Of a stretch of 45,777 nt of DNA, positions 3,690 to 35,280 are shown piece by piece. Every line of letters begins with the position of its first letter. Position 1 is the stretch's first letter. This stretch comes from a virus. The translations under genes were made by a program, and so were the position numbers. The stretch lies in IMG/VR virus record IMGVR_UViG_3300020183_000138, positions 1-45,777 of that record. One strand, 5' to 3'. The notes under the pieces were generated by a model. That model saw nothing but the letters and a program-made list of their open reading frames with translations. It was not told the origin of the DNA and ran no database searches.

Positions 3690-4265
3690 TCAAAAAGGCC
3701 AAAAGCCACGATCGTCTAGACCGTGTGCTGCATCAATGGCGGCTCTCCAATGACGCACCTGCTCATCATTTTTGATAGCTTCGAGAATACTCATTGATGC
3801 AATCATCTTCATACCTTCCTCGTAGGCTTTTTGGTTTTCATCGCCTTTTACTACTTTAGGCTCACCAAAAGCTTTATCTTTGATGTAATTAGCCCAAGTG
3901 TCTTCCGTGCGAGCTTTGTAAGCCTCTAAAGCTTCTCTATCCCGTTCTTTGCCCTTAGCTTCTAGATAGCCGCTTCTTCCATACTCTCGAAGTAGACCTT
4001 GTGCATTTCCGGCTAAGACATCGGCCAATCCCTTTACACCGGCACCGGCACCGGCGCCAAGGCCGCCACCGATAAGAGCCCCCTTAAGCTTAGACTTACC
4101 ACGCAGTGCATTTACCAGAGCGCCGATACCCGCACCAGCAAGACCTCCGCCGCCTGCATAGACGCCGTAGTTAGCGAGCTGACTCTCAAACGGGCTAAAA
4201 CTGCCTACAGTAAGTAGAGCTCGCTTTTCTACCATGGATTTAACATTATTTGCTACTTTAATCAT
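3690..4265 (-). CDS. Glycine-zipper virion-type protein, MIKVANN tag
   Basis: 191 aa. It opens with MIKVANNVKSMVEKR, a tag shared with the genes at 20812 and 21562. Residues about 33-85 form glycine-zipper helices (YAGGGGLAGAGIGALVNALRG, then KLKGALIGGGLGAG) that are almost identical to those of the gene at 13298, so the two are paralogues. The C-terminal half is charged and helical. Start: ATG with GGAG about 9 nt upstream. Glycine zippers usually insert into or assemble in membranes, so an injected or internal virion protein is plausible. It is last in the operon. Confidence 0.7.
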   Translation of the reverse strand: MIKVANNVKSMVEKRALLTVGSFSPFESQLANYGVYAGGGGLAGAGIGALVNALRGKSKLKGALIGGGLGAGAGAGVKGLADVLAGNAQGLLREYGRSGYLEAKGKERDREALEAYKARTEDTWANYIKDKAFGEPKVVKGDENQKAYEEGMKMIASMSILEAIKNDEQVRHWRAAIDAAHGLDDRGFWPF

Positions 4266-6704: not shown

Positions 6705-7349
6705 TTATTCAAACTTATCGTAACGTTTAATTATATCTTTAAATCTTTTACTCTTCAAAGCTCGTTGCTTAGCTAAATGCTGGCCTAACAATAGACCCCC
6801 CAGCCCAGCAAGGCTAGCTGCAGCTCCGCCGGCTAATACAGGAGTAAGTACTTTACCGAATTGATCCTGGCCTGCTAAATAGCTGGTGCCGCCAGCCCCT
6901 AGTCCGGCAAGTATGGCAGCAGTGATGCCCCACTTGTTGCCAGAGCTAGTGATGTCTTCCAATAGCTTCTTTTCGCCTTTATTAAAGTATTTAAGAGCAG
7001 TATCTAAACGATCCTTCTCTTTAGAGAACAAGTGCAGCTGCCCCAATAGCTTGCCTGCGCCTAACCCAGCAAACATACCAGCTGGACCCCCAACAAGGGT
7101 GCCAATACCGGCTGCAGGTAAACCGTAGGCCCCCTGATACAGCGCTGAGTCGCCCAGCTCCCAAAGGCGTTGCTTATTCCATAGAGTGGGGCCAAAGAAT
7201 TGTTGCTTTAGATCCTCTGCACCTCTGAACGGAGTCTGCTCTGGACTGCCAGCTACAACCGTGGCTTTCTCAAGCACATCGCCAGGCAGATGAGACAGGT
7301 TGACTGCCTGCTCAATAGCTTTGCCAAGGTTGTTCTTTTGTTTAGCCAT
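6705..7349 (-). CDS. Glycine-zipper protein next to RNA polymerase gene
   Basis: 214 aa. Begins MAKQKNNLGKAIEQAVNLS, which is not one of the common tags. It has hydrophobic glycine-rich segments at about 72-98 (YGLPAAGIGTLVGGPAGMFAG) and 140-190, with a charged lysine-rich helix between, and ends KRFKDIIKRYDKFE. Its start lies 3 nt after the polymerase stop codon, so the two are co-translated. A role in packaging or delivery of the polymerase is possible but is based only on position. Confidence 0.62.
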   Translation of the reverse strand: MAKQKNNLGKAIEQAVNLSHLPGDVLEKATVVAGSPEQTPFRGAEDLKQQFFGPTLWNKQRLWELGDSALYQGAYGLPAAGIGTLVGGPAGMFAGLGAGKLLGQLHLFSKEKDRLDTALKYFNKGEKKLLEDITSSGNKWGITAAILAGLGAGGTSYLAGQDQFGKVLTPVLAGGAAASLAGLGGLLLGQHLAKQRALKSKRFKDIIKRYDKFE

Positions 7350-7352
7350 CGA

Positions 7353-10300
7353 TTACTTACCAAGAATCTTTACCGTATCAGTAGGGCTGAGTTCGCCGCG
7401 GTTGAACGCCTTAATGACATCGTCTTTAGTTTGGAATACCTTAACGTTGCTCTTATCTGGTGGGCGCTTGCTAGCTAAATAAAGGCCGTATAAAAACTCG
7501 TTCTTAATAAATGGCTGAGCCTGGAATGTTGCAGCAGACATGAGATTACGACTAGGCAACATGCGTTCGTAGGCTTCAGCTACAGCCTTCTGGGAGGAGG
7601 GAACGTGCAGACGCATCTGATCGCCGTCAAAGTCTGCATTAAATCCAACAACGACAGATGGCGACAATCTAAGGGTGCTACCTGTGGTCAGTCTTGGCTT
7701 GGCTGCCATGAAGTTGTACTTGTGCAGTACGGGCGCTCGGGTAATCATAACCGGACGCTTGTCCATTTCAGCGAGTAGGGCTCGCTTGGCAGTTGTTGTT
7801 CTATTTTCAACCTGCTTCATCGCCTCCAGAGGATTTGCCCCAGAAGCAACGAGAGATCGAACTACGTATGGGCGGAATACAGAGAATGCCATGTCCTCGG
7901 GTACCCCAACATGGTCCATGTCTAGTGAAGGATCTGGGGTAATAACGGCATTACCTACGCCTTCTACGGTAGAAGACAGCACCTTGCGCTGGAACATAGA
8001 GAACTTGGGATTGCTGCCAAGAATGTGTCTAATCAGGCCGTTTACATTCTTCTGCTTGAGCTTTGCACTAGCCGGGTCGGCAAGACCGACCGTAGCCTTG
8101 ATCATCTTATAAAGCGCAAGCTTTTCTTTGCCTGTGGCTTCATTGCCCAGCTCGCCTTGCAGTTCCTTCAAGTTACCGTTCATGCTGAACAGTTCTTTGT
8201 ACAGATAGTTCATGTCTGAGACCATCTGCATATTGCCGGTATCGGTAATGGGTCTGAAGCGAGGGGGCAGTACTGGCATGTCCTCCCAGAGGAAATCGCC
8301 AGGCTTGATCTTGCGCTTCTCCATGCCCTCTAAATACGAAAGTTTGGAAATAGCGTTGCTGCGCTTCTGCCCCTTGGATGCCGTGATTTCTCTACGGGTG
8401 GCCTCAATCTCTGCTGGGATATTCATGCCAACAAGTTTCTGCTCCAATCCTTCCATACCGCGAATGCCTTTGACTGTATCACCAGACACTACGGATTCAA
8501 AGTCTTTCTTGGTGAGTCCGGTAAGGGAGCGCACCACGTCCTCCATGACAGGATTGACCATCTTGGCGGCAAGAGGGAAATGGCCGAAAGATGATTGATT
8601 GACGCCAAAGATCTTCTCGTCAAAGAAACCGCCGTCATAGGCTTTGCCTGTCTTGAAGTCGATGTCTCGGAAGTCCTTGACCTCACCACCAGACAAACTC
8701 TTAACATCTTTGCCGGTCATGCCGTAAATGTTTACGGCGCCGCCTTGACGTTCTACGTTGACCCCAGCACCCTTGAGCTGAGCTACGAACTTATCCCATA
8801 CGAATGGAACATTGACGGAAGGCACTGGAGTACCCATCTTGATCGCACGCCAGTATTCGTCGTTCTTCTGGCCACGGACAAGTCGGGCATCTTTGAGTAC
8901 TTCGATAGCGCCGTGGGCAAGAATAGCATTCATATCAGAGATGGAGATACGCTTAGCGCCTTCATCTCCACCCTTGACTGGAGCTTCTTCAGTGCTGTAA
9001 CCACCGGTATCACGGGCGCTCAGCTTCTTCTCGGCCTGGTGGTGCAGGTTCATGAAGTAGCGATTGCCGGTAAATACATTATCTACGTTGCGATTAAGTC
9101 TTGGGTCGTAGATAGTCTCTGTATCTGTAAGGCCGTTTTTCTTTAGCTCTCGTTGAGCAAAGTCTATGAAGCTTTCGTCCAGGAACGCCGGAAGCTTGAC
9201 TGGCTGCCCAGTCTTAGTGGCAATTTTGCCCATTGCGGCCTCCACGGCCTGAACAGGATTAACACGAGTGACAAGAGCCAGGGGGTTGTAAATGACTTCA
9301 TATGAATTGCCGTCCTTATCCTTGGGCATATCTTCATCTGGAATGATGGTGGAGATGACACCTTTGTCGCCGTAACGACCGACCAGCTTATCGCCTACAG
9401 ACATTGGCTTGTAGGACTTGATCGCCACCTGGTATCCGCTGCGGGTCTTGGTGACGTTGGTGACAATGCCAGGCTGGCTGTGATCCCAGGTTTGGGCTCT
9501 GTTCGTATAGCTCGGTCTCGCCTTCTTCATCAGACCAAAAGTGTCGGACTTTCTTTCGCCTACACCAAGGATAATTGGATCACCTGGATTTAAAGTAGTG
9601 CCGGGTTTCACGACGCCTGTAGCAGAATTCAGATTAACCAACTGCTCTTTGTTGTACTGCCCTGGGAATAAAGATACAAACTTACTGAAGTTGGCCTCGT
9701 AGTCGTCCTTGCCGTCATAGCCAACGGTGTACATGTGCTCAGACGACATCTTCTTGGCAGCTGTCTCAGACATGACTACGCCGTCTTCGAAGTTAGACCC
9801 ACCCAGTTCAGGATCGCCCCAGACGGTATACGCCACCTTTAGATTACGACCCATGGCAAGTCTGCCCTGGTCATCAGAATAGTTAGACTTAGCCAATAGC
9901 TGACCAGGCTTGATCTGATCCCCCAGCTTAACCATTGGCGTATTATGAATATAAGTCTTGCGGTTAAACGGGAAGTTGTTGTACAGCTCGTAACGGCGCT
10001 TTTCCTTGCCGTGCTTTACCTCTACGTATTCTGGCGTAACCGCAGTGACGAGACCATTGCCAAGGTCAGCTTCGGCAGCTACTGCACCAAGGTGCGGTAC
10101 AAGCTGCTCTTCAAACGATCTACCCTCTGCGTCATTAGGATCTAATCCCTGTACCAGGGGCGCTTCGGCACCCTGGACAGGTAGCGCCTGAGTGAAGTAC
10201 TTGGAACCCATGAGCAGGCGTCCACCCTTGATGCCGGAAATGCCAGGCACAAGGTTGGAGTTGATGTTAAACATGTTGCTGTGGGCAGGCACTTCGTACT

Positions 10301-12272
10301 CGACCTCTGCAGGATCGACATAGGAGATGCGGCCACGCACCATCGCCCTGATTGGATCTCCAGTCTTCGCCGAGCGTGCAAGTTCCCCAGGGAACGCAAC
10401 AATCGAATCGGTCAGCGTACGAGCCGCCACAGGCTCCAGCTTGCCGGTCTTGATGCTACGCATCCTGGAGTATATCTGGCCATCTGAGCCCTTGTAGGAG
10501 CCTACGGTGAGTCGTAGGTCGATACCTACCTTGTCGGACTCAGGAGTACGAACTGGGTCTAGGAACCCAAGGTGAGATGGCTGGACTGAACGGCTGTCAA
10601 CAGGAATGCCGTGAGCGGCTGAACCAATACCGCCCTCACCAGTGCGGATTACACGCATATTCTGATCCAGGATCTCCATCGGATTTACTTCTTCGATGGG
10701 AGCGCCGAGACCAGAACCGATGAGTACACCATTGAGCACCGGTGTAAATACACCGTTGCGGAATGCATTTAAGTTGCCTTTATTGGTAGCCTTGAATAGA
10801 GCTGTTCTGACAGCTGCGCCGGCGTCCTTTTGAATTCTTTCGGAGAAGAAGTCCTCTGGGCCTAGGAACTTCTGATAGGCCAAGGAGTCACGATCATCCT
10901 GATCTTCAAGACCGCGTTGAGCATTAAGAATCTTTTGAGAGGCGCGCAGTAAAGTGCTGCCAGTTATTCTGCTTAAGTCTTCGTCGTTGAGCTGCATTTG
11001 CTCATACTCGAAGTCCTGCATGGTGGGCAAAGGGGCAGCTTCCTTCTCAGTCAGTAATTCATTTAAATTAGCAGCAACCTTTGTACCTACAGCTAGTCTA
11101 AAGCCACCACGAGGCTTGGCATCGAGTAGCAGGCTTCTACGAAGTTGCTCCAGCTCCGGGCACTCAATATCAATGCAGTATTCCCCGCCGTTGGGTGGCA
11201 GTACGCTGCGAATATTGTAGGTAAATCTACGGCCAGAACCGCAGGTGGTCTCAAAGTTCTTACGGAAGACTTTCTTTAGCTGCTTAAGCTCTTCTGCCGT
11301 AATAACGACAAGCTTGCCCTTGTCGGCAACGGGAGAGATAGCAGGAGCTTTGTCAGAATCCCTTAGCGCATAGAAAACGCTATCTACGAATCCTGCAGGT
11401 ACGGTAATGTAGCCTTCGCCTTCGATCTTTAGTGTACCCCGCAGCGGTACATCTGCTTGCTTCTTGATGACTCCGGCATAACTCAAAGTACGACGGGTAA
11501 CCTCTGGGTCTAGCTCAGTCTTATAAAGAGCATCTTTGATGCCTTGATAAATCGTGGCATCGTCTAGACCCTTGGAAGGATTATTGGTTAGTCGTTCATA
11601 GATACGAGCTGCGTCGTAAGCTGAACCAATCTTATTGGACCCCAGAAGCTCCTTGCCCCAGGTGCGCTCAAGAATAGAGTCGTCAATACCCATGGCCTTG
11701 AACATCGGATATGCAGGAGCAACGGACTGCCCAATCTCGGCAACAAACTTTCCAGTATCTGGCATAAAGGCCATGCGGAAACCACGACCCTTGCCCGGCA
11801 TGGTGTTGAAGTGCGCCTCAAACTCGCCAGACTTACGCTTACGAACGTATGGCCCTGCAAGCAGACGAGACTGATTGGCTACGGTGTATTCGCTGCCTGC
11901 GTTAATAAACGTGCCACGATCCGTAAGATATGGCACTCTGGCAAGAGTGACAGATCTATCGGTCTGATCCATGATCTCGCCGGTAGCGTTATCCTTCATT
12001 ACCAGGCGGCCACGCAAGGGAACATAAAGACTCTGATTCTGCATCAGAGCCTCTTGCTGTTCCTTCAGGCTGTAGGGTTCAGAGCGACCGTAATCTAAGT
12101 CCGAAAGCTCGACAGTGTATCGAGTGTTCTGCAGGGGAAACTTTGACAATACCGCATTCTTTACCCCGTCAAAGATATTCTTACGGGTGACACGGTAATC
12201 GTTAAAGCCCCTCAGCACCGGGGCAGGAGGGGCTACGAGTTGGTTTAAGTCGTCTGCACCGGGCGTAGGCAT
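7353..12272 (-). CDS. RNA polymerase beta fused to N-terminal half of beta'
   Basis: 1639 aa, DNA-directed RNA polymerase of the multisubunit type. Residues 1 to about 1185 are beta-like: GTFINAGSEYTVANQSRLLA (120-139), HLGFLDPVRTPESDKVG (about 563-580, like the HYGRxCPxETPEGxNIG region), VAYTVWGDPELGGSNFEDG, and GDKLVGRYGDKGVIS (about 960-974). Beta'-like sequence begins at about 1190 with FRDIDFKTGKAYDGGFFDEKIFG, then PVLPPRFRPI (about 1333), RAPVLHKYNFMA and the Mg-binding NADFDGD (1545-1551). The zinc-ribbon cysteines normally following the first beta' motif are absent. The protein ends 88 residues after NADFDGD, before the regions holding the bridge helix and trigger loop. Host enzymes have these as separate proteins, and phiKZ-type phages split them into four or more. 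The gene sits among putative virion genes, which suggests a packaged polymerase (inference). Confidence 0.93.
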   Translation of the reverse strand: MPTPGADDLNQLVAPPAPVLRGFNDYRVTRKNIFDGVKNAVLSKFPLQNTRYTVELSDLDYGRSEPYSLKEQQEALMQNQSLYVPLRGRLVMKDNATGEIMDQTDRSVTLARVPYLTDRGTFINAGSEYTVANQSRLLAGPYVRKRKSGEFEAHFNTMPGKGRGFRMAFMPDTGKFVAEIGQSVAPAYPMFKAMGIDDSILERTWGKELLGSNKIGSAYDAARIYERLTNNPSKGLDDATIYQGIKDALYKTELDPEVTRRTLSYAGVIKKQADVPLRGTLKIEGEGYITVPAGFVDSVFYALRDSDKAPAISPVADKGKLVVITAEELKQLKKVFRKNFETTCGSGRRFTYNIRSVLPPNGGEYCIDIECPELEQLRRSLLLDAKPRGGFRLAVGTKVAANLNELLTEKEAAPLPTMQDFEYEQMQLNDEDLSRITGSTLLRASQKILNAQRGLEDQDDRDSLAYQKFLGPEDFFSERIQKDAGAAVRTALFKATNKGNLNAFRNGVFTPVLNGVLIGSGLGAPIEEVNPMEILDQNMRVIRTGEGGIGSAAHGIPVDSRSVQPSHLGFLDPVRTPESDKVGIDLRLTVGSYKGSDGQIYSRMRSIKTGKLEPVAARTLTDSIVAFPGELARSAKTGDPIRAMVRGRISYVDPAEVEYEVPAHSNMFNINSNLVPGISGIKGGRLLMGSKYFTQALPVQGAEAPLVQGLDPNDAEGRSFEEQLVPHLGAVAAEADLGNGLVTAVTPEYVEVKHGKEKRRYELYNNFPFNRKTYIHNTPMVKLGDQIKPGQLLAKSNYSDDQGRLAMGRNLKVAYTVWGDPELGGSNFEDGVVMSETAAKKMSSEHMYTVGYDGKDDYEANFSKFVSLFPGQYNKEQLVNLNSATGVVKPGTTLNPGDPIILGVGERKSDTFGLMKKARPSYTNRAQTWDHSQPGIVTNVTKTRSGYQVAIKSYKPMSVGDKLVGRYGDKGVISTIIPDEDMPKDKDGNSYEVIYNPLALVTRVNPVQAVEAAMGKIATKTGQPVKLPAFLDESFIDFAQRELKKNGLTDTETIYDPRLNRNVDNVFTGNRYFMNLHHQAEKKLSARDTGGYSTEEAPVKGGDEGAKRISISDMNAILAHGAIEVLKDARLVRGQKNDEYWRAIKMGTPVPSVNVPFVWDKFVAQLKGAGVNVERQGGAVNIYGMTGKDVKSLSGGEVKDFRDIDFKTGKAYDGGFFDEKIFGVNQSSFGHFPLAAKMVNPVMEDVVRSLTGLTKKDFESVVSGDTVKGIRGMEGLEQKLVGMNIPAEIEATRREITASKGQKRSNAISKLSYLEGMEKRKIKPGDFLWEDMPVLPPRFRPITDTGNMQMVSDMNYLYKELFSMNGNLKELQGELGNEATGKEKLALYKMIKATVGLADPASAKLKQKNVNGLIRHILGSNPKFSMFQRKVLSSTVEGVGNAVITPDPSLDMDHVGVPEDMAFSVFRPYVVRSLVASGANPLEAMKQVENRTTTAKRALLAEMDKRPVMITRAPVLHKYNFMAAKPRLTTGSTLRLSPSVVVGFNADFDGDQMRLHVPSSQKAVAEAYERMLPSRNLMSAATFQAQPFIKNEFLYGLYLASKRPPDKSNVKVFQTKDDVIKAFNRGELSPTDTVKILGK

Positions 12273-12289: not shown

Positions 12290-13294
12290 TTAAAGCTTGA
12301 ATTTAGGCTTACCTTCGTCAGTCTCTTCAAGATCAATACCCGATGCAAGAGCACCGGAAGCAATATCGCGCTTGAGCATGCTTTGCAGAGTCTTGAGCTT
12401 GGCCTTCTCAGGATCGTCCTTCATTTTATTCTGCATCATCATCCAGCCAAGCAAAGCACCTACGCCAGGAGCCAGACCTAGAGCGTAAGCAGCCCCTGGA
12501 ACACTGAATCCCAGGCCGTGCGGATCAGGGCTTCTCACAATCTTATCCTCAGGAATTGGATCAATAGCCTGTTTTACCAAACCATCGATCTGCACTTGAA
12601 GATCAGAGGATTGCTTTGAGAGAGCCTTTTCAAATTCTTTTTTGGCTTTCTCAACCTTAGACTCCATCTTCTGCTTACGACTCTGATCGATGAGTCTAGT
12701 GCCTAGCATAAAGGTAAGAATACCGGGAGCCAGCATTGCAGCTGGAGTAGCCATGCCGTACATCATTGGCTCTGTGAGGTATTCTCCTAATGTGTTAGAT
12801 ACCTTCTCGCCAGGCTCCTTGGGATTCTCCATGTCGTCTATGACTTCCTGAGAAAGATCTGAAGTAGTTTCGTCTGCTTTCTCTGGCAGCATATCTGCAG
12901 GGCTGGCTGTATCGCTAGGCAAATACTCCTGTAGTTTGTGGCTCTTTGGAATAGCAATACGCTTCTCCATACGCTTTGCACGACTCTCTTGGCCAGGAAA
13001 GCCAAACACGGATTCGTCGTGCAGGTACTTACCAAGACCATAGAGTCCCACGCCACCAAGGCCTACCCCTGCACTGATGGCAGCATAGTTAAGTAGTTGT
13101 TTTACGTTGGGATCCATGGATTCCTTTTTGCTTTCCGGTAGATCTTCATGCTTCGTCTTGGCAAAGTCACGCACATCTTTTTCAGACATGCTTGCCGCGG
13201 CTTCTTCGGCCTTACCAGAGCCAGTAGCCTTGCCCTCTTGGATGGCCTTGACTAAACCAAAAAAGCGTTGTTGCTGCTTGCTCTGAGCAGGCAT
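12290..13294 (-). CDS. DUF3008-like N-terminus with membrane segments
   Basis: 334 aa. The first ~60 residues (MPAQSKQQQRFFGLVKAIQ ... SMSEKDVRDFAKTKHEDLPE) closely resemble the small DUF3008 family, in which short proteins begin MPAxSxxQQRF and carry a 'SMSxKDxxDFAxTKH' motif. Here that unit is fused to hydrophobic segments at about 67-87, 175-200 and 270-290, with a coiled-coil stretch of lysine/glutamate at about 207-230. Start: ATG with GGAGG 7 nt upstream. It lies directly upstream of the RNA polymerase gene (17-nt gap). Its role is unknown; virion association is inferred from position. Confidence 0.65.
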   Translation of the reverse strand: MPAQSKQQQRFFGLVKAIQEGKATGSGKAEEAAASMSEKDVRDFAKTKHEDLPESKKESMDPNVKQLLNYAAISAGVGLGGVGLYGLGKYLHDESVFGFPGQESRAKRMEKRIAIPKSHKLQEYLPSDTASPADMLPEKADETTSDLSQEVIDDMENPKEPGEKVSNTLGEYLTEPMMYGMATPAAMLAPGILTFMLGTRLIDQSRKQKMESKVEKAKKEFEKALSKQSSDLQVQIDGLVKQAIDPIPEDKIVRSPDPHGLGFSVPGAAYALGLAPGVGALLGWMMMQNKMKDDPEKAKLKTLQSMLKRDIASGALASGIDLEETDEGKPKFKL

Positions 13295-13297
13295 GAA

Positions 13298-13837
13298 TTA
13301 ACCTCCAAAGCCAAGCATACCCTTGGCAGCATCCGTCTTCTTAGAGAGTGTGTCCTTGAGAGCGGCTAGAAGATCCTGTTGCTCGGATTCATTAATTCTA
13401 TTTACAAGTCGGCGCTCAAATTGAGCAGGCGTAGTACCTGTACCTAAACCTTCCAATGCGTCGGCAGTTTCAAGGACCCGAGCTAGAGCGCCGCCACCCA
13501 TACGCATGGGGTAGTTTGTTCGCAGAGCAGCTAAGTCCTCTTTATCCTTTTTAATCTGAGCGGCTTGATCGCTGAGAGCATAATTGCCAAGAGCCTTTGC
13601 ACCTGCGCCTAGGCCAGCACCAACGCCACCACCGATGAGAGCACCCTTAAGTTTAGACTCACCACGCAGTGCGTTTACCAGAGCGCCGATACCGGCACCA
13701 GCAAGTCCGCCACCACCTGCATAAAGAGCGTAGTCCTTTAAGAGACTGTCAGTGGGACTAAGGGCTGCAAGGGCATCCTGAACAGTGACATTAGATTTTT
13801 TAAGAGTTGGACGAAGATGAGAGTAGGTCATTAACAT
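13298..13837 (-). CDS. Glycine-zipper virion-type protein, paralogue of 3690 gene
   Basis: About 179 aa from the ATG at 13835-13837 (MLMTYSHLRPTLKK). An upstream GTG-like extension would overlap the preceding gene and is not used. The segment YALYAGGGGLAGAGIGALV ... LKGALIGGGVGAGLG matches the gene at 3690 nearly residue for residue. The C-terminal half is helical and charged and ends KGMLGFGG. The tag differs from that of its paralogue, so the N-terminal segment has been exchanged. Confidence 0.65.
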   Translation of the reverse strand: MLMTYSHLRPTLKKSNVTVQDALAALSPTDSLLKDYALYAGGGGLAGAGIGALVNALRGESKLKGALIGGGVGAGLGAGAKALGNYALSDQAAQIKKDKEDLAALRTNYPMRMGGGALARVLETADALEGLGTGTTPAQFERRLVNRINESEQQDLLAALKDTLSKKTDAAKGMLGFGG

Positions 13838-13842
13838 TATTC

Positions 13843-14481
13843 TTATTCTTTCATATAATTTTGCGAATAAACATCTTTGTTTGACCAAGGTTCGATTACA
13901 CCACCGGTAAGAGCGCCCAATCCGGCGCCTGCTAGAGCGCCTAAGCCAGGATATAAAATCTGTGCCTCGGTATCGGCATGGCGCGGCGTCACGACGTAGC
14001 CCTGTAGACCGCCAAGAGCACCTCCCGCTAGAGCCCCCGCCAGAGCTCTTCGAAGTCTGTTAGGTTCGGATCTTCTAGTTATGATGTCTTCGTTCGCATA
14101 ACCTAAAAACGCATTGGATCCGGCGCCAAGGCCGGCGCCAAGGCCGCCACCGATGAGTGCGCCGAGTAAGCCTTGGAAACCCCGACCTTTAGTGTGAAAT
14201 GCGTCGACCCCGCCATGGGCGCCAGCGGCTCCGGCTATAGCACCTAAGAGGGCTCCGGCACCACCCCCATACAGAGCACCTCTGCGGGCACGACCTGCGT
14301 AATCCACTTTTCTATCCTCTGCAGGAACGTCTTCTGCTTGTTCCTGCTTTCTTTTTTTACGCCTCACCTTATCGGCTGCAGCTTCGGCTTCATCATCATC
14401 AGCAAGCTTTTGCCTAAAGTCGTTTGATAACTTGACCCAGAGGTAGTCACGCAATAGAGAGTATTCTGCTGCCTTATTCAT
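13843..14481 (-). CDS. Glycine-zipper virion-type protein, LLRDYL tag
   Basis: 212 aa. N-terminus MNKAAEYSLLRDYLWVKLS is the third tag type (compare YALLRHYLMQKIA at 19919). A very charged linker (about 25-60, DDEAEAAADKVRRKKRKQ) leads into two zipper blocks separated by YANEDIITRRSEPNRLRRAL, the same arrangement as the gene at 6152. The start overlaps the end of the upstream gene by 8 nt. Confidence 0.66.
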   Translation of the reverse strand: MNKAAEYSLLRDYLWVKLSNDFRQKLADDDEAEAAADKVRRKKRKQEQAEDVPAEDRKVDYAGRARRGALYGGGAGALLGAIAGAAGAHGGVDAFHTKGRGFQGLLGALIGGGLGAGLGAGSNAFLGYANEDIITRRSEPNRLRRALAGALAGGALGGLQGYVVTPRHADTEAQILYPGLGALAGAGLGALTGGVIEPWSNKDVYSQNYMKE

Positions 14482-33420: not shown

Positions 33421-35280
33421 TTACTGCGGAGGAGGCATCGGCTGGCGTAGTTGCTCTTTGCCTTGATTAGCTGCCTGCTGGGTAATACCGTCCAGCATGC
33501 TCTTGACCACGGCATGTAGGTTTGGATCCTGGCCCTTGATCTGATCCAGGATCTGTCTACGCTGCGGAGAGCCAAGCGGGGCTGTAGCCATGATCTCGTT
33601 GACTCGAGCCTGGGCATCCGCAAAGAAGCTGTCCAGATCCTTGCTTGGGCCTGCTGCCATTGGCCCTGCAACGCCGTTGACGGGCATAGGAGGGGCCATT
33701 GGCGGACCGCCAAGGTTGGGCCCACCTGGCATGCCACCGGCTCCCATTGGAGCCCCTGGGCCTGCGATCATTGCGCCAGGAGGGGCAGCCATGATCTGCT
33801 CGTTCTCTTCCGCCTTGCGCATCTTGTCCATGTACTCCTTCTCGGCCCGCATCTTGAACTCCTGCTCTGCCTGGCGCTTCTTGAAGGTATCCTTCCAGTC
33901 GAGGCCAAAGAGAGTGAGTACATCCTGCTCTGCAGCAACGCCTTGCATCATCATCTGCAGCATGAGCATGCGGCGTTCGATGTCGTCGGCATGGGTAGGC
34001 TTCGTGAGGTTGACTTCACAAGGCGCCCAGTTAAGAATTGCGCTGACTCTGTCCACAATCCAAGTAAGAGTTGTCTGCAAGCCGTGCAGGAAGTGCGTCT
34101 CACCAGCCTCAAAGAGTCGAGCTGCAAAGGGAGCAGTCTGGGCACTTAGAGTCTTTCGATACAGCTCTACCGGAACACCCATGCCGTTGAGGAAGTCTGC
34201 TTGAGCTTGCTCTAGGAGTTCAGGTACGACAAAAGCCTTACCCTCGCCGCCAAGCAACTGATAGTTAACCGGGATAGGCATCCACTGCCAGCCTGTAGGG
34301 TCTCTACGAGCTCGCTCCACTGACCTCAACACGGACTGTCCAAAGCTGCCAATATTGACTGACTTCATAAAGTCACCGCCTGCTCCGACAGAGGCGGGGG
34401 TTACGAAGCGAATTGGCAACATATGGTCTAAAGCAATGCTTTCGTTATTGCGCTTGAGGATCTGGGCAAGATAGGCATCTCGGAAACCGGCAATAACCGG
34501 AGGCAGACCCCATACGCCCATCTTAATATCGCTTAGATTGCCTAAAGAGAAGTGGTGCACCATGTTGTCGCTGAACTGAAACAGGGTTCCAGATCGGACA
34601 GACTGCACCAGGGCCCAAGGCACACTCTCCAGGTACTTCTTATTGCCGCTCTGGATCTGCTGTATGTCCTGCGGAGGCACTTCATAGAAGTAGTCAGGCT
34701 TTCCACCATATTGGTGAGCTACAATGCGCATTTGCTTGATGGGCCAGCGCTTGATGTAGATTTCGTTTTCCTGCAAAGTAGGACGATCGTCTGGATTCAA
34801 GCAAGTAGCGTGCTTATTGCAGCTGCTGCAGGTAAAACTGAACCCGTGATTCAGCGTAAACTTGTAATCAACGCTTTGAATTGGTCTGCTGGCTCCGCAT
34901 TTATCACAAGTCAGAAAGCGCTTGAATGGGGCCAGTACGGAAATGCAGCTATTGCCGTATACCTTTACATCCCGGCCAATCATGAACAGCAAAGACTTAA
35001 GATCCAGCTTTTCAATCAGAAACTTCTTGTACTGATTAGCCTTTTCCTCGTCGTCAGCCAATAGATTGATGTCCGTGCCGGTGAAGTACGAAACCACGTA
35101 CTCAGTAGCTTGGGCAAACGTTCTATTGCTGTAGTACATCGTCTCCGCAATTTCAAACGCTTCGTTGAGATTGGTAGGAAGGTGCAGCGAAGCGTAGTCC
35201 AGGAACGGACTTGGGACGTGCTCTGCGTGCGACAGAGACCGTCGAGCTGGCATCTGCGGATTGGACGAAAAGTCAGGCAT
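33421..35280 (-). CDS. Portal protein with zinc-ribbon-like insert
   Basis: 619 aa. Helical N-terminus (EAFEIAETMYYSNRTFAQAT), then a core with IYIKRWPIKQMRIV, MVHHFSLGNLSDI, GLPPVIAGFRDAYLAQIL and a long C-terminal helical part: the order and length typical of portal proteins of large phages. A CxxC pair (C125, C128) and a second CxxC (C151, C154) plus C160 form a likely zinc site, unusual for a portal. Residues about 500-560 are a Gly/Pro/Met-rich linker. AGAGGAA before the ATG. The portal forms the dodecameric DNA gate of the capsid. Confidence 0.75.
   Translation of the reverse strand: MPDFSSNPQMPARRSLSHAEHVPSPFLDYASLHLPTNLNEAFEIAETMYYSNRTFAQATEYVVSYFTGTDINLLADDEEKANQYKKFLIEKLDLKSLLFMIGRDVKVYGNSCISVLAPFKRFLTCDKCGASRPIQSVDYKFTLNHGFSFTCSSCNKHATCLNPDDRPTLQENEIYIKRWPIKQMRIVAHQYGGKPDYFYEVPPQDIQQIQSGNKKYLESVPWALVQSVRSGTLFQFSDNMVHHFSLGNLSDIKMGVWGLPPVIAGFRDAYLAQILKRNNESIALDHMLPIRFVTPASVGAGGDFMKSVNIGSFGQSVLRSVERARRDPTGWQWMPIPVNYQLLGGEGKAFVVPELLEQAQADFLNGMGVPVELYRKTLSAQTAPFAARLFEAGETHFLHGLQTTLTWIVDRVSAILNWAPCEVNLTKPTHADDIERRMLMLQMMMQGVAAEQDVLTLFGLDWKDTFKKRQAEQEFKMRAEKEYMDKMRKAEENEQIMAAPPGAMIAGPGAPMGAGGMPGGPNLGGPPMAPPMPVNGVAGPMAAGPSKDLDSFFADAQARVNEIMATAPLGSPQRRQILDQIKGQDPNLHAVVKSMLDGITQQAANQGKEQLRQPMPPPQ

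What the first reader, a model, noticed from the sequence alone, without database searches (positions are those of the whole stretch)
7353..12272. Beta/beta'-N fusion RNA polymerase missing the rest of beta'
One chain holds the whole beta subunit and beta' up to 88 residues after NADFDGD. The beta' zinc ribbon is gone and the bridge-helix/trigger-loop half is absent from this window. phiKZ-type phages split the same subunits into several pieces; here the first pieces are joined instead. If the missing half is encoded elsewhere this is a distinct architecture; if not, the enzyme would be very minimal.
Basis: partly seen in the sequence, partly recalled or inferred. Interest (0 to 1): 0.88.

Follow-up and report, generated by a model that had tools for sequence, protein, structure and literature searches.

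The report
Two-chain phage RNA polymerase, half outside window
A large phage encodes its own RNA polymerase in an unusual layout, with all of beta and the front of beta' joined in one chain and the rest of beta' made by a separate gene that the 46-kb fragment does not reach; many related phages share this layout, including isolated Salmonella and Vibrio phages.

Summary
The 1639-aa ORF (7353-12272, minus) holds complete beta (1-1174) joined to beta' N (1175-1639), ending exactly 88 aa after NADFDGD, with the beta' zinc ribbon cleanly deleted. The window is a linear 45.8-kb virus contig. A relative 91% identical in this protein, with a terminally redundant 174.6-kb contig, encodes the remaining beta' (bridge helix, trigger loop; about 620 aa) 40.6 kb downstream; the window stops short of it. 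The fused ORF plus separate beta'C recurs in dozens of IMG/VR contigs (up to 208 kb) and in isolated phages: Salmonella phage Arash (gp206 + gp216) and Vibrio phage D69. Published Arash virion proteomics ranks gp206 first and gp216 fifth by spectral counts and detects a sigma factor (gp10). The family encodes a small sigma70-like protein, no detectable alpha or omega, and one RNAP per genome. The window's clade also lost the second beta' zinc site. The tree puts the fusion as ancestral, with one later re-split. Best reading: a complete, bacterial-like, two-chain, probably virion-carried RNAP, distinct from phiKZ-type enzymes. The layout exists in deposited phages, but I found no paper describing it as a fusion: a new variant of a known kind.

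The parts
7353..12272 (-). beta/beta'N fusion, 1639 aa, catalytic chain 1 of the phage RNA polymerase
   Evidence: ORF and Pfam; NCBIfam; tblastn to Arash gp206, 89% of query covered at 30.5% identity, E 7e-173; purifying selection, dN/dS about 0.04
8751..12272 (-). beta part (residues 1-1174), including the DPBB lysines
   Evidence: NF001616 (rpoB) 30-1174 to 36-1093 of 1096; alignment to E. coli beta 1-1342
9363..9389 (-). beta catalytic lysines K962 and K970 in GDKLVGRYGDKG (E. coli K1065, K1073)
   Evidence: alignment
7356..8750 (-). beta' N-terminal part (residues 1175-1639) joined to the beta C-terminus
   Evidence: alignment starts at about E. coli beta' residue 15; Rpb1_1 and Rpb1_2
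8592..8606 (-). site where the beta' zinc ribbon (about E. coli 62-100) is deleted (..EKIFG|VNQS..)
   Evidence: alignment
7620..7640 (-). NADFDGD catalytic motif (residues 1545-1551); chain ends 88 residues later
   Evidence: sequence
33421..35280 (-). portal protein homologue (Arash gp204), context: a tailed-phage structural gene
   Evidence: phmmer with Arash gp204, E 4e-52; also the D69 homologue, E 5.5e-55

Best explanation
The ORF is the larger of two catalytic chains of a complete phage multisubunit RNA polymerase. Chain 1 is all of beta tethered to beta' up to just past the Mg-binding double-psi barrel. Chain 2 is beta'C (bridge helix, trigger loop, jaw and C-terminal region, about 620 aa), encoded about 34-41 kb downstream on the same strand, beyond the window's left end. 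Most likely the two chains assemble without alpha or omega, with the beta-beta' tether helping to replace the alpha scaffold; they bind a small phage sigma70-like factor, are packaged in the virion, and transcribe early phage genes after injection. Shown here: the fusion, the loss of the zinc ribbon, the separate beta'C and sigma-like genes in relatives, absence of detectable alpha and omega, one RNAP per genome. Shown in a relative by others: both chains and sigma are in Arash virions. Inferred: that the window's own genome carries beta'C and sigma, that the enzyme is active, that it is injected, and that the tether replaces alpha.
For: beta'C in two close relatives: G007 163563-165410 and G002 56189-58033, collinear with the window and placed on G007's 533-bp terminally redundant map. 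beta'C in 18 of 20 further family records. The rpoC model is tiled by chain 1 (ends 534) and chain 2 (starts 549). Catalytic Asp triad, two beta lysines and trigger-loop His kept. beta'C model mean pLDDT 81, best PDB matches are bacterial beta', TM (query) about 0.69. Sigma70_r3 protein in 14 of 16 genomes, 10 over the cut-off, with a profile match to solved sigma factors, E 2.7e-9, and in G007 placed beside homologues of Arash gp12/gp13. No PF01000 or PF01192 while controls ring. One beta' DPBB locus per genome. Arash virion MS: gp206 3516 spectra (highest), gp216 1210, gp10 467 (PMC10585845). beta'C sits among homologues of Arash virion-protein genes in the same order.
Against: The window's own genome is not held, so its beta'C and sigma are inferred from relatives 91-93% identical in chain 1. 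Virion presence rests on one relative at about 30% identity, and its authors note that abundant infection proteins could carry over. Sigma in G007 is below the Pfam cut-off (E 2.9e-5). The AlphaFold model of chain 1 was too poor to use (pLDDT 60). No activity data exist, and trigger-loop R933 is not conserved.
Confidence: 0.8

Rival explanations
1. It is the same two-chain RNAP but made and used after infection (non-virion), with virion detection in Arash a carry-over.
For: The Arash authors raise this possibility. There is one RNAP per genome, so the same enzyme may have to serve middle or late genes too.
Against: Chain 1 has the highest spectral count of any Arash virion protein, above the major capsid protein. 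beta'C and sigma sit in blocks of virion-protein genes.
Confidence: 0.15
2. The fused chain is a minimal polymerase that works alone without beta'C.
For: beta'C is absent from this window.
Against: beta'C is in both close relatives with long enough contigs and in 18 of 20 other records. The chain alone lacks the bridge helix and trigger loop.
Confidence: 0.02
3. Frameshift or assembly break at 7353, with an ordinary full-length beta' in reality.
For: None found.
Against: No beta'C sequence follows in any frame. The same end point recurs in independent contigs and isolates. The downstream gene 6705-7349 is intact.
Confidence: 0.01
4. The protein is a catalytically dead structural or packaging protein derived from RNAP.
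For: Very abundant in Arash virions; some trigger-loop residues changed.
Against: All catalytic Asp and Lys residues kept, dN/dS about 0.04; a dedicated sigma-like gene and beta'C are co-conserved.
Confidence: 0.03

Closest known systems
Salmonella phage Arash RNAP (gp206, gp216, sigma gp10; OQ632216, PMC10585845)
   Same: Same fusion end point, separate beta'C, small sigma, no alpha detected, comparable genome size (180.8 kb); all three proteins detected in virions.
   Different: About 30% identity. Arash keeps the second beta' zinc-site cysteines, which the window's relatives lost. Its beta'C lies 4.7 kb downstream instead of 34-41 kb. The paper names gp206 'beta' and gp216 'beta'' and does not mention a fusion.
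phiKZ/AR9-type jumbo phage virion and non-virion RNAPs (PMC7598289)
   Same: Phage multisubunit RNAP without alpha or omega; beta' split after its DPBB; one of the two forms is virion-packaged.
   Different: phiKZ types have at least 5 (virion) or 4 (non-virion) chains with beta split, two RNAPs per genome and no sigma. Here beta is whole and fused to beta'N, with one RNAP per genome and a sigma-like factor.
mReC Caudovirales RNAP (PMC7481178)
   Same: Deep-branching phage beta/beta' found in IMG/VR contigs.
   Different: Described as beta and beta' subunits with no mention of a beta-beta'N fusion or split beta'; overlap of the contig sets could not be checked.
Helicobacter/Wolinella fused rpoBC (PMC9696931)
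   Same: beta and beta' joined in one polypeptide.
   Different: There beta' is complete and cellular with alpha, omega and zinc sites; here beta' is cut after the DPBB.
Cyanobacterial gamma/beta' split (rpoC1/rpoC2)
   Same: beta' cut into an N part with the DPBB and a C part with bridge helix and trigger loop.
   Different: The phage N part ends at about 549-557 of the 619-626-residue gamma models, so the cut lies earlier; no beta fusion in cyanobacteria.

Membership tests
Multisubunit (two-barrel) RNA polymerase | NADFDGD Mg-binding motif in the beta' DPBB | tested here: met
   residues 1545-1551
Multisubunit (two-barrel) RNA polymerase | two catalytic lysines in the beta DPBB | tested here: met
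   K962, K970
Multisubunit (two-barrel) RNA polymerase | bridge helix and trigger loop | tested here: inconclusive
   not in the window; present in beta'C of close relatives
Arash-type fused phage RNAP | beta fused to beta'N ending 87-90 aa after the DGD motif | tested here: met
Arash-type fused phage RNAP | separate beta'C gene in the same genome | tested here: inconclusive
   window is a fragment; met in G002 and G007
Arash-type fused phage RNAP | small sigma70-like factor in the genome | tested here: inconclusive
   none in the window; G007 has one, E 2.9e-5
Arash-type fused phage RNAP | chains packaged in the virion | not testable with these tools
   published for Arash only
phiKZ/AR9-type phage RNAP | beta split into two or more chains | tested here: not met
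   beta is whole, one profile stretch 30-1174
phiKZ/AR9-type phage RNAP | two RNAP sets per genome | tested here: not met
   one beta' DPBB locus per genome in 17 relatives
phiKZ/AR9-type phage RNAP | no sigma factor encoded | tested here: not met
   sigma-like protein in 14 of 16 family genomes
phiKZ/AR9-type phage RNAP | no alpha subunit | tested here: met
   no PF01000 match in 16 records
Fused rpoBC (Helicobacter type) | full-length beta' in the fused chain | tested here: not met
   chain stops at rpoC model position 534 of 1147; 309 bits against a cut-off of 5372 for NF007172
mReC RNAP | clade separate from bacterial RNAP | tested here: met
   family separate from 8 bacterial RNAPs; no mReC sequences were available to place with it

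The most novel reading that the evidence does not exclude
A widespread, essentially undescribed class of two-chain phage holoenzyme: tethered beta-beta'N plus beta'C plus a small sigma, with no alpha, no omega and, in the window's clade, neither structural zinc site, packaged in the virion. The tether would replace the alpha scaffold, giving perhaps the simplest bacterial-like multisubunit RNAP that still uses a sigma factor.
Probability: 0.5. Interest if true: 0.72.

Novelty: new variant of a known kind. Interest (0 to 1): 0.55.

Why it matters
Known phage multisubunit RNAPs are treated mostly as phiKZ-type, fragmented and sigma-free. This family shows a second solution: join beta to beta'N, cut beta' after the barrel, keep a sigma, drop alpha, omega and, in one clade, both zinc sites. 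It makes testable how a bacterial-type RNAP assembles without alpha and what the beta' zinc ribbon and zinc site 2 are needed for, and isolated phages such as Arash are available for it. It also shows that split and fused layouts change within one lineage, which bears on using subunit splits as evidence of deep ancestry.

Tried and rejected
beta'C or frameshift inside the window: none. Same cut as the cyanobacterial gamma/beta' split: near but earlier by the gamma models. A contig of the same length as the window (45,777 bp, L122) as the window's own missing piece: the fetched 7.9 kb shares no DNA with the window and is a near-identical copy of the G007 phage. AlphaFold of chain 1 residues 470-1639: pLDDT 60, pTM 0.34, not used and not searched. 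Over-represented promoter 7-mers upstream of genes in G007 and the window: none recurred six times or more, so no promoter proposal. Alpha and omega genes: none detected. Several 'phage' database hits are contaminating bacterial rpoBC and were used only as an outgroup. Split inteins as the reason for the distant beta pieces in G037: no intein halves seen at that break.

Full report
Observation. The minus-strand ORF 7353-12272 encodes 1639 aa. Pfam places Rpb2_3 and Rpb2_6 (beta) and Rpb1_1 (C-terminal part) and Rpb1_2 (beta') in the one chain. NCBIfam rpoB covers residues 30-1174 in one stretch, and rpoC covers 1263-1637, ending at model position 534 of 1147. NADFDGD is at 1545-1551 and exactly 88 residues follow. 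Aligned to E. coli RpoB+RpoC, beta ends at residue 1174, beta' starts near E. coli residue 15, and the zinc-ribbon segment (about 62-100) is absent while its flanks align. The catalytic Asp triad and both beta lysines are kept.

The missing half. The window is a linear 45,777-bp virus record with no beta'C by Pfam or by the Arash protein. Seven relatives came from IMG/VR on the first scan, six of them 90-93% identical in their best segment (the seventh 78%). One of these, G007, is 174,569 bp with a 533-bp, 99% terminal overlap, so it is close to a complete map; the window is collinear with its 25.8-67.3 kb. Its fusion lies at 32.0-36.9 kb and its beta'C at 163,563-165,410, both minus strand, 40.6 kb apart across the joint. 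In G002 the two are 33.7 kb apart. The window ends 7.4 kb past the fusion, so beta'C would lie outside it. beta'C of G007 begins at rpoC model position 549, so the two chains tile beta' almost without gap. It has the bridge helix (GARGN) and trigger loop; its AlphaFold model (mean pLDDT 81) matches bacterial beta' chains, TM about 0.69 on the query.

Not an artefact. dN/dS against G002 and G007 is about 0.04; nothing like beta'C follows the stop in any frame; the fused ORF ends 87-90 aa after the DGD motif in members down to about 30% identity.

Known relatives. tblastn in the phage collection finds Salmonella phage Arash (gp206, 89% of the query) and Vibrio phages D69, D181 and D148. Arash gp216 and its Vibrio counterpart are the beta'C. 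The Arash paper reports gp206 as the most-detected virion protein (3516 spectra), gp216 1210 and sigma gp10 467, and notes that these may be needed early or be carry-over (PMC10585845). It calls them beta and beta' without noting the fusion. A family-wide scan gives 34 loci and further contigs up to 207,857 bp; beta'C is found in 18 of 20 family records tested.

Partners. A protein of about 240 aa matching Sigma70_r3 is in 14 of 16 family genomes, 10 over the curated cut-off; the aligned set matches solved sigma factors at E 2.7e-9. In G007 it lies beside homologues of Arash gp12 and gp13, as in Arash. No alpha or omega is detectable, while the controls ring. Each of 17 genomes has one beta' DPBB locus, unlike the two sets of phiKZ-type phages (PMC7598289).

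Zinc. Arash and D69 keep the cysteines of the second beta' zinc site; G007, G002 and two other members of the window's clade have lost them. With the zinc ribbon gone, this clade seems to have no beta' zinc site. This is a sequence inference.

Evolution. A tree of beta plus beta'N (quick method) separates the family from eight bacterial RNAPs and from YerA41/Cobetia phage RNAPs, with three deep clades. One clade (L057, L060, L063, L064, L065, L068) has beta and most of beta'N in separate ORFs, but its 'beta' ORF still carries the first part of beta', and it nests as sister to the Arash/D69 clade. The fusion is therefore most simply ancestral, followed by a re-split at a new site. Four branches are long and the tree is a short search, so deep order is tentative.

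How it most likely works. Inference: two chains form a bacterial-like core whose beta-beta' tether helps to replace the alpha dimer, a small sigma gives promoter specificity, and the complex enters with the DNA to start early transcription. By alignment the rifampicin pocket differs at Q513, D516, H526 and S531, so insensitivity to rifampicin is predicted.

Novelty. The layout is present in deposited and published phages, but I found no paper that describes a beta-beta'N fusion with separate beta'C; only open-licence papers were searchable. Fused rpoBC in Helicobacter (PMC9696931) and the cyanobacterial beta' split are precedents for the two halves of the design. I rate it a new variant of a known kind.

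Noticed in passing
L008:9983-16120, L048, L059, L071: Inserts in the fused gene: L008 has an in-frame insert of about 400 aa with intein-splicing and LAGLIDADG domains after FPFNRK (L048 has a similar-sized insert at the same place); L059 and L071 carry LAGLIDADG domains, and L071 also has an insert directly after the DFDGD motif.
   Followed up: partly
L002:9218-14732 (Vibrio phage D181): The fused gene is interrupted by a homing endonuclease gene that splits it into two annotated ORFs, while the related D69 has it whole.
   Followed up: no
G037:C1:27519-44804; G039:C1:85891-116579: beta split into pieces 11-22 kb apart; in G037 the second ORF also has a large insert after DFDGD.
   Followed up: partly
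G038:C1:27607-31551; G043:C1:117209-121255: Stop codons inside the matched fused-gene stretch (4 TAA; 1 TGA and 2 TAA), possibly introns or short gaps between ORFs.
   Followed up: no
L025:7425-8105 (Arash gp7) and L094, L098: A small virion protein (226 aa in Arash) resembling the beta' zinc-site-2/trigger-loop N segment; a possible RNAP-derived structural protein.
   Followed up: partly
L180 (RXKB01000001.1, 226,528 bp): A contig in a MAG labelled Candidatus Dependentiae carries a split member of this family with beta'C shortly downstream; probably a misbinned large phage.
   Followed up: partly
window 3690-4265, 6705-7349, 12290-13294, 13298-13888: Several glycine-rich or Gly-zipper-like proteins flank the fusion (weak, sub-threshold Pfam matches); candidates for virion membrane or ejection proteins.
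   Followed up: no
L122 (IMGVR_UViG_3300043775_003039): Contig of exactly the window's length (45,777 bp) from the G007 phage; the fetched 7.9 kb shares no DNA with the window, so the equal length looks like coincidence.
   Followed up: yes
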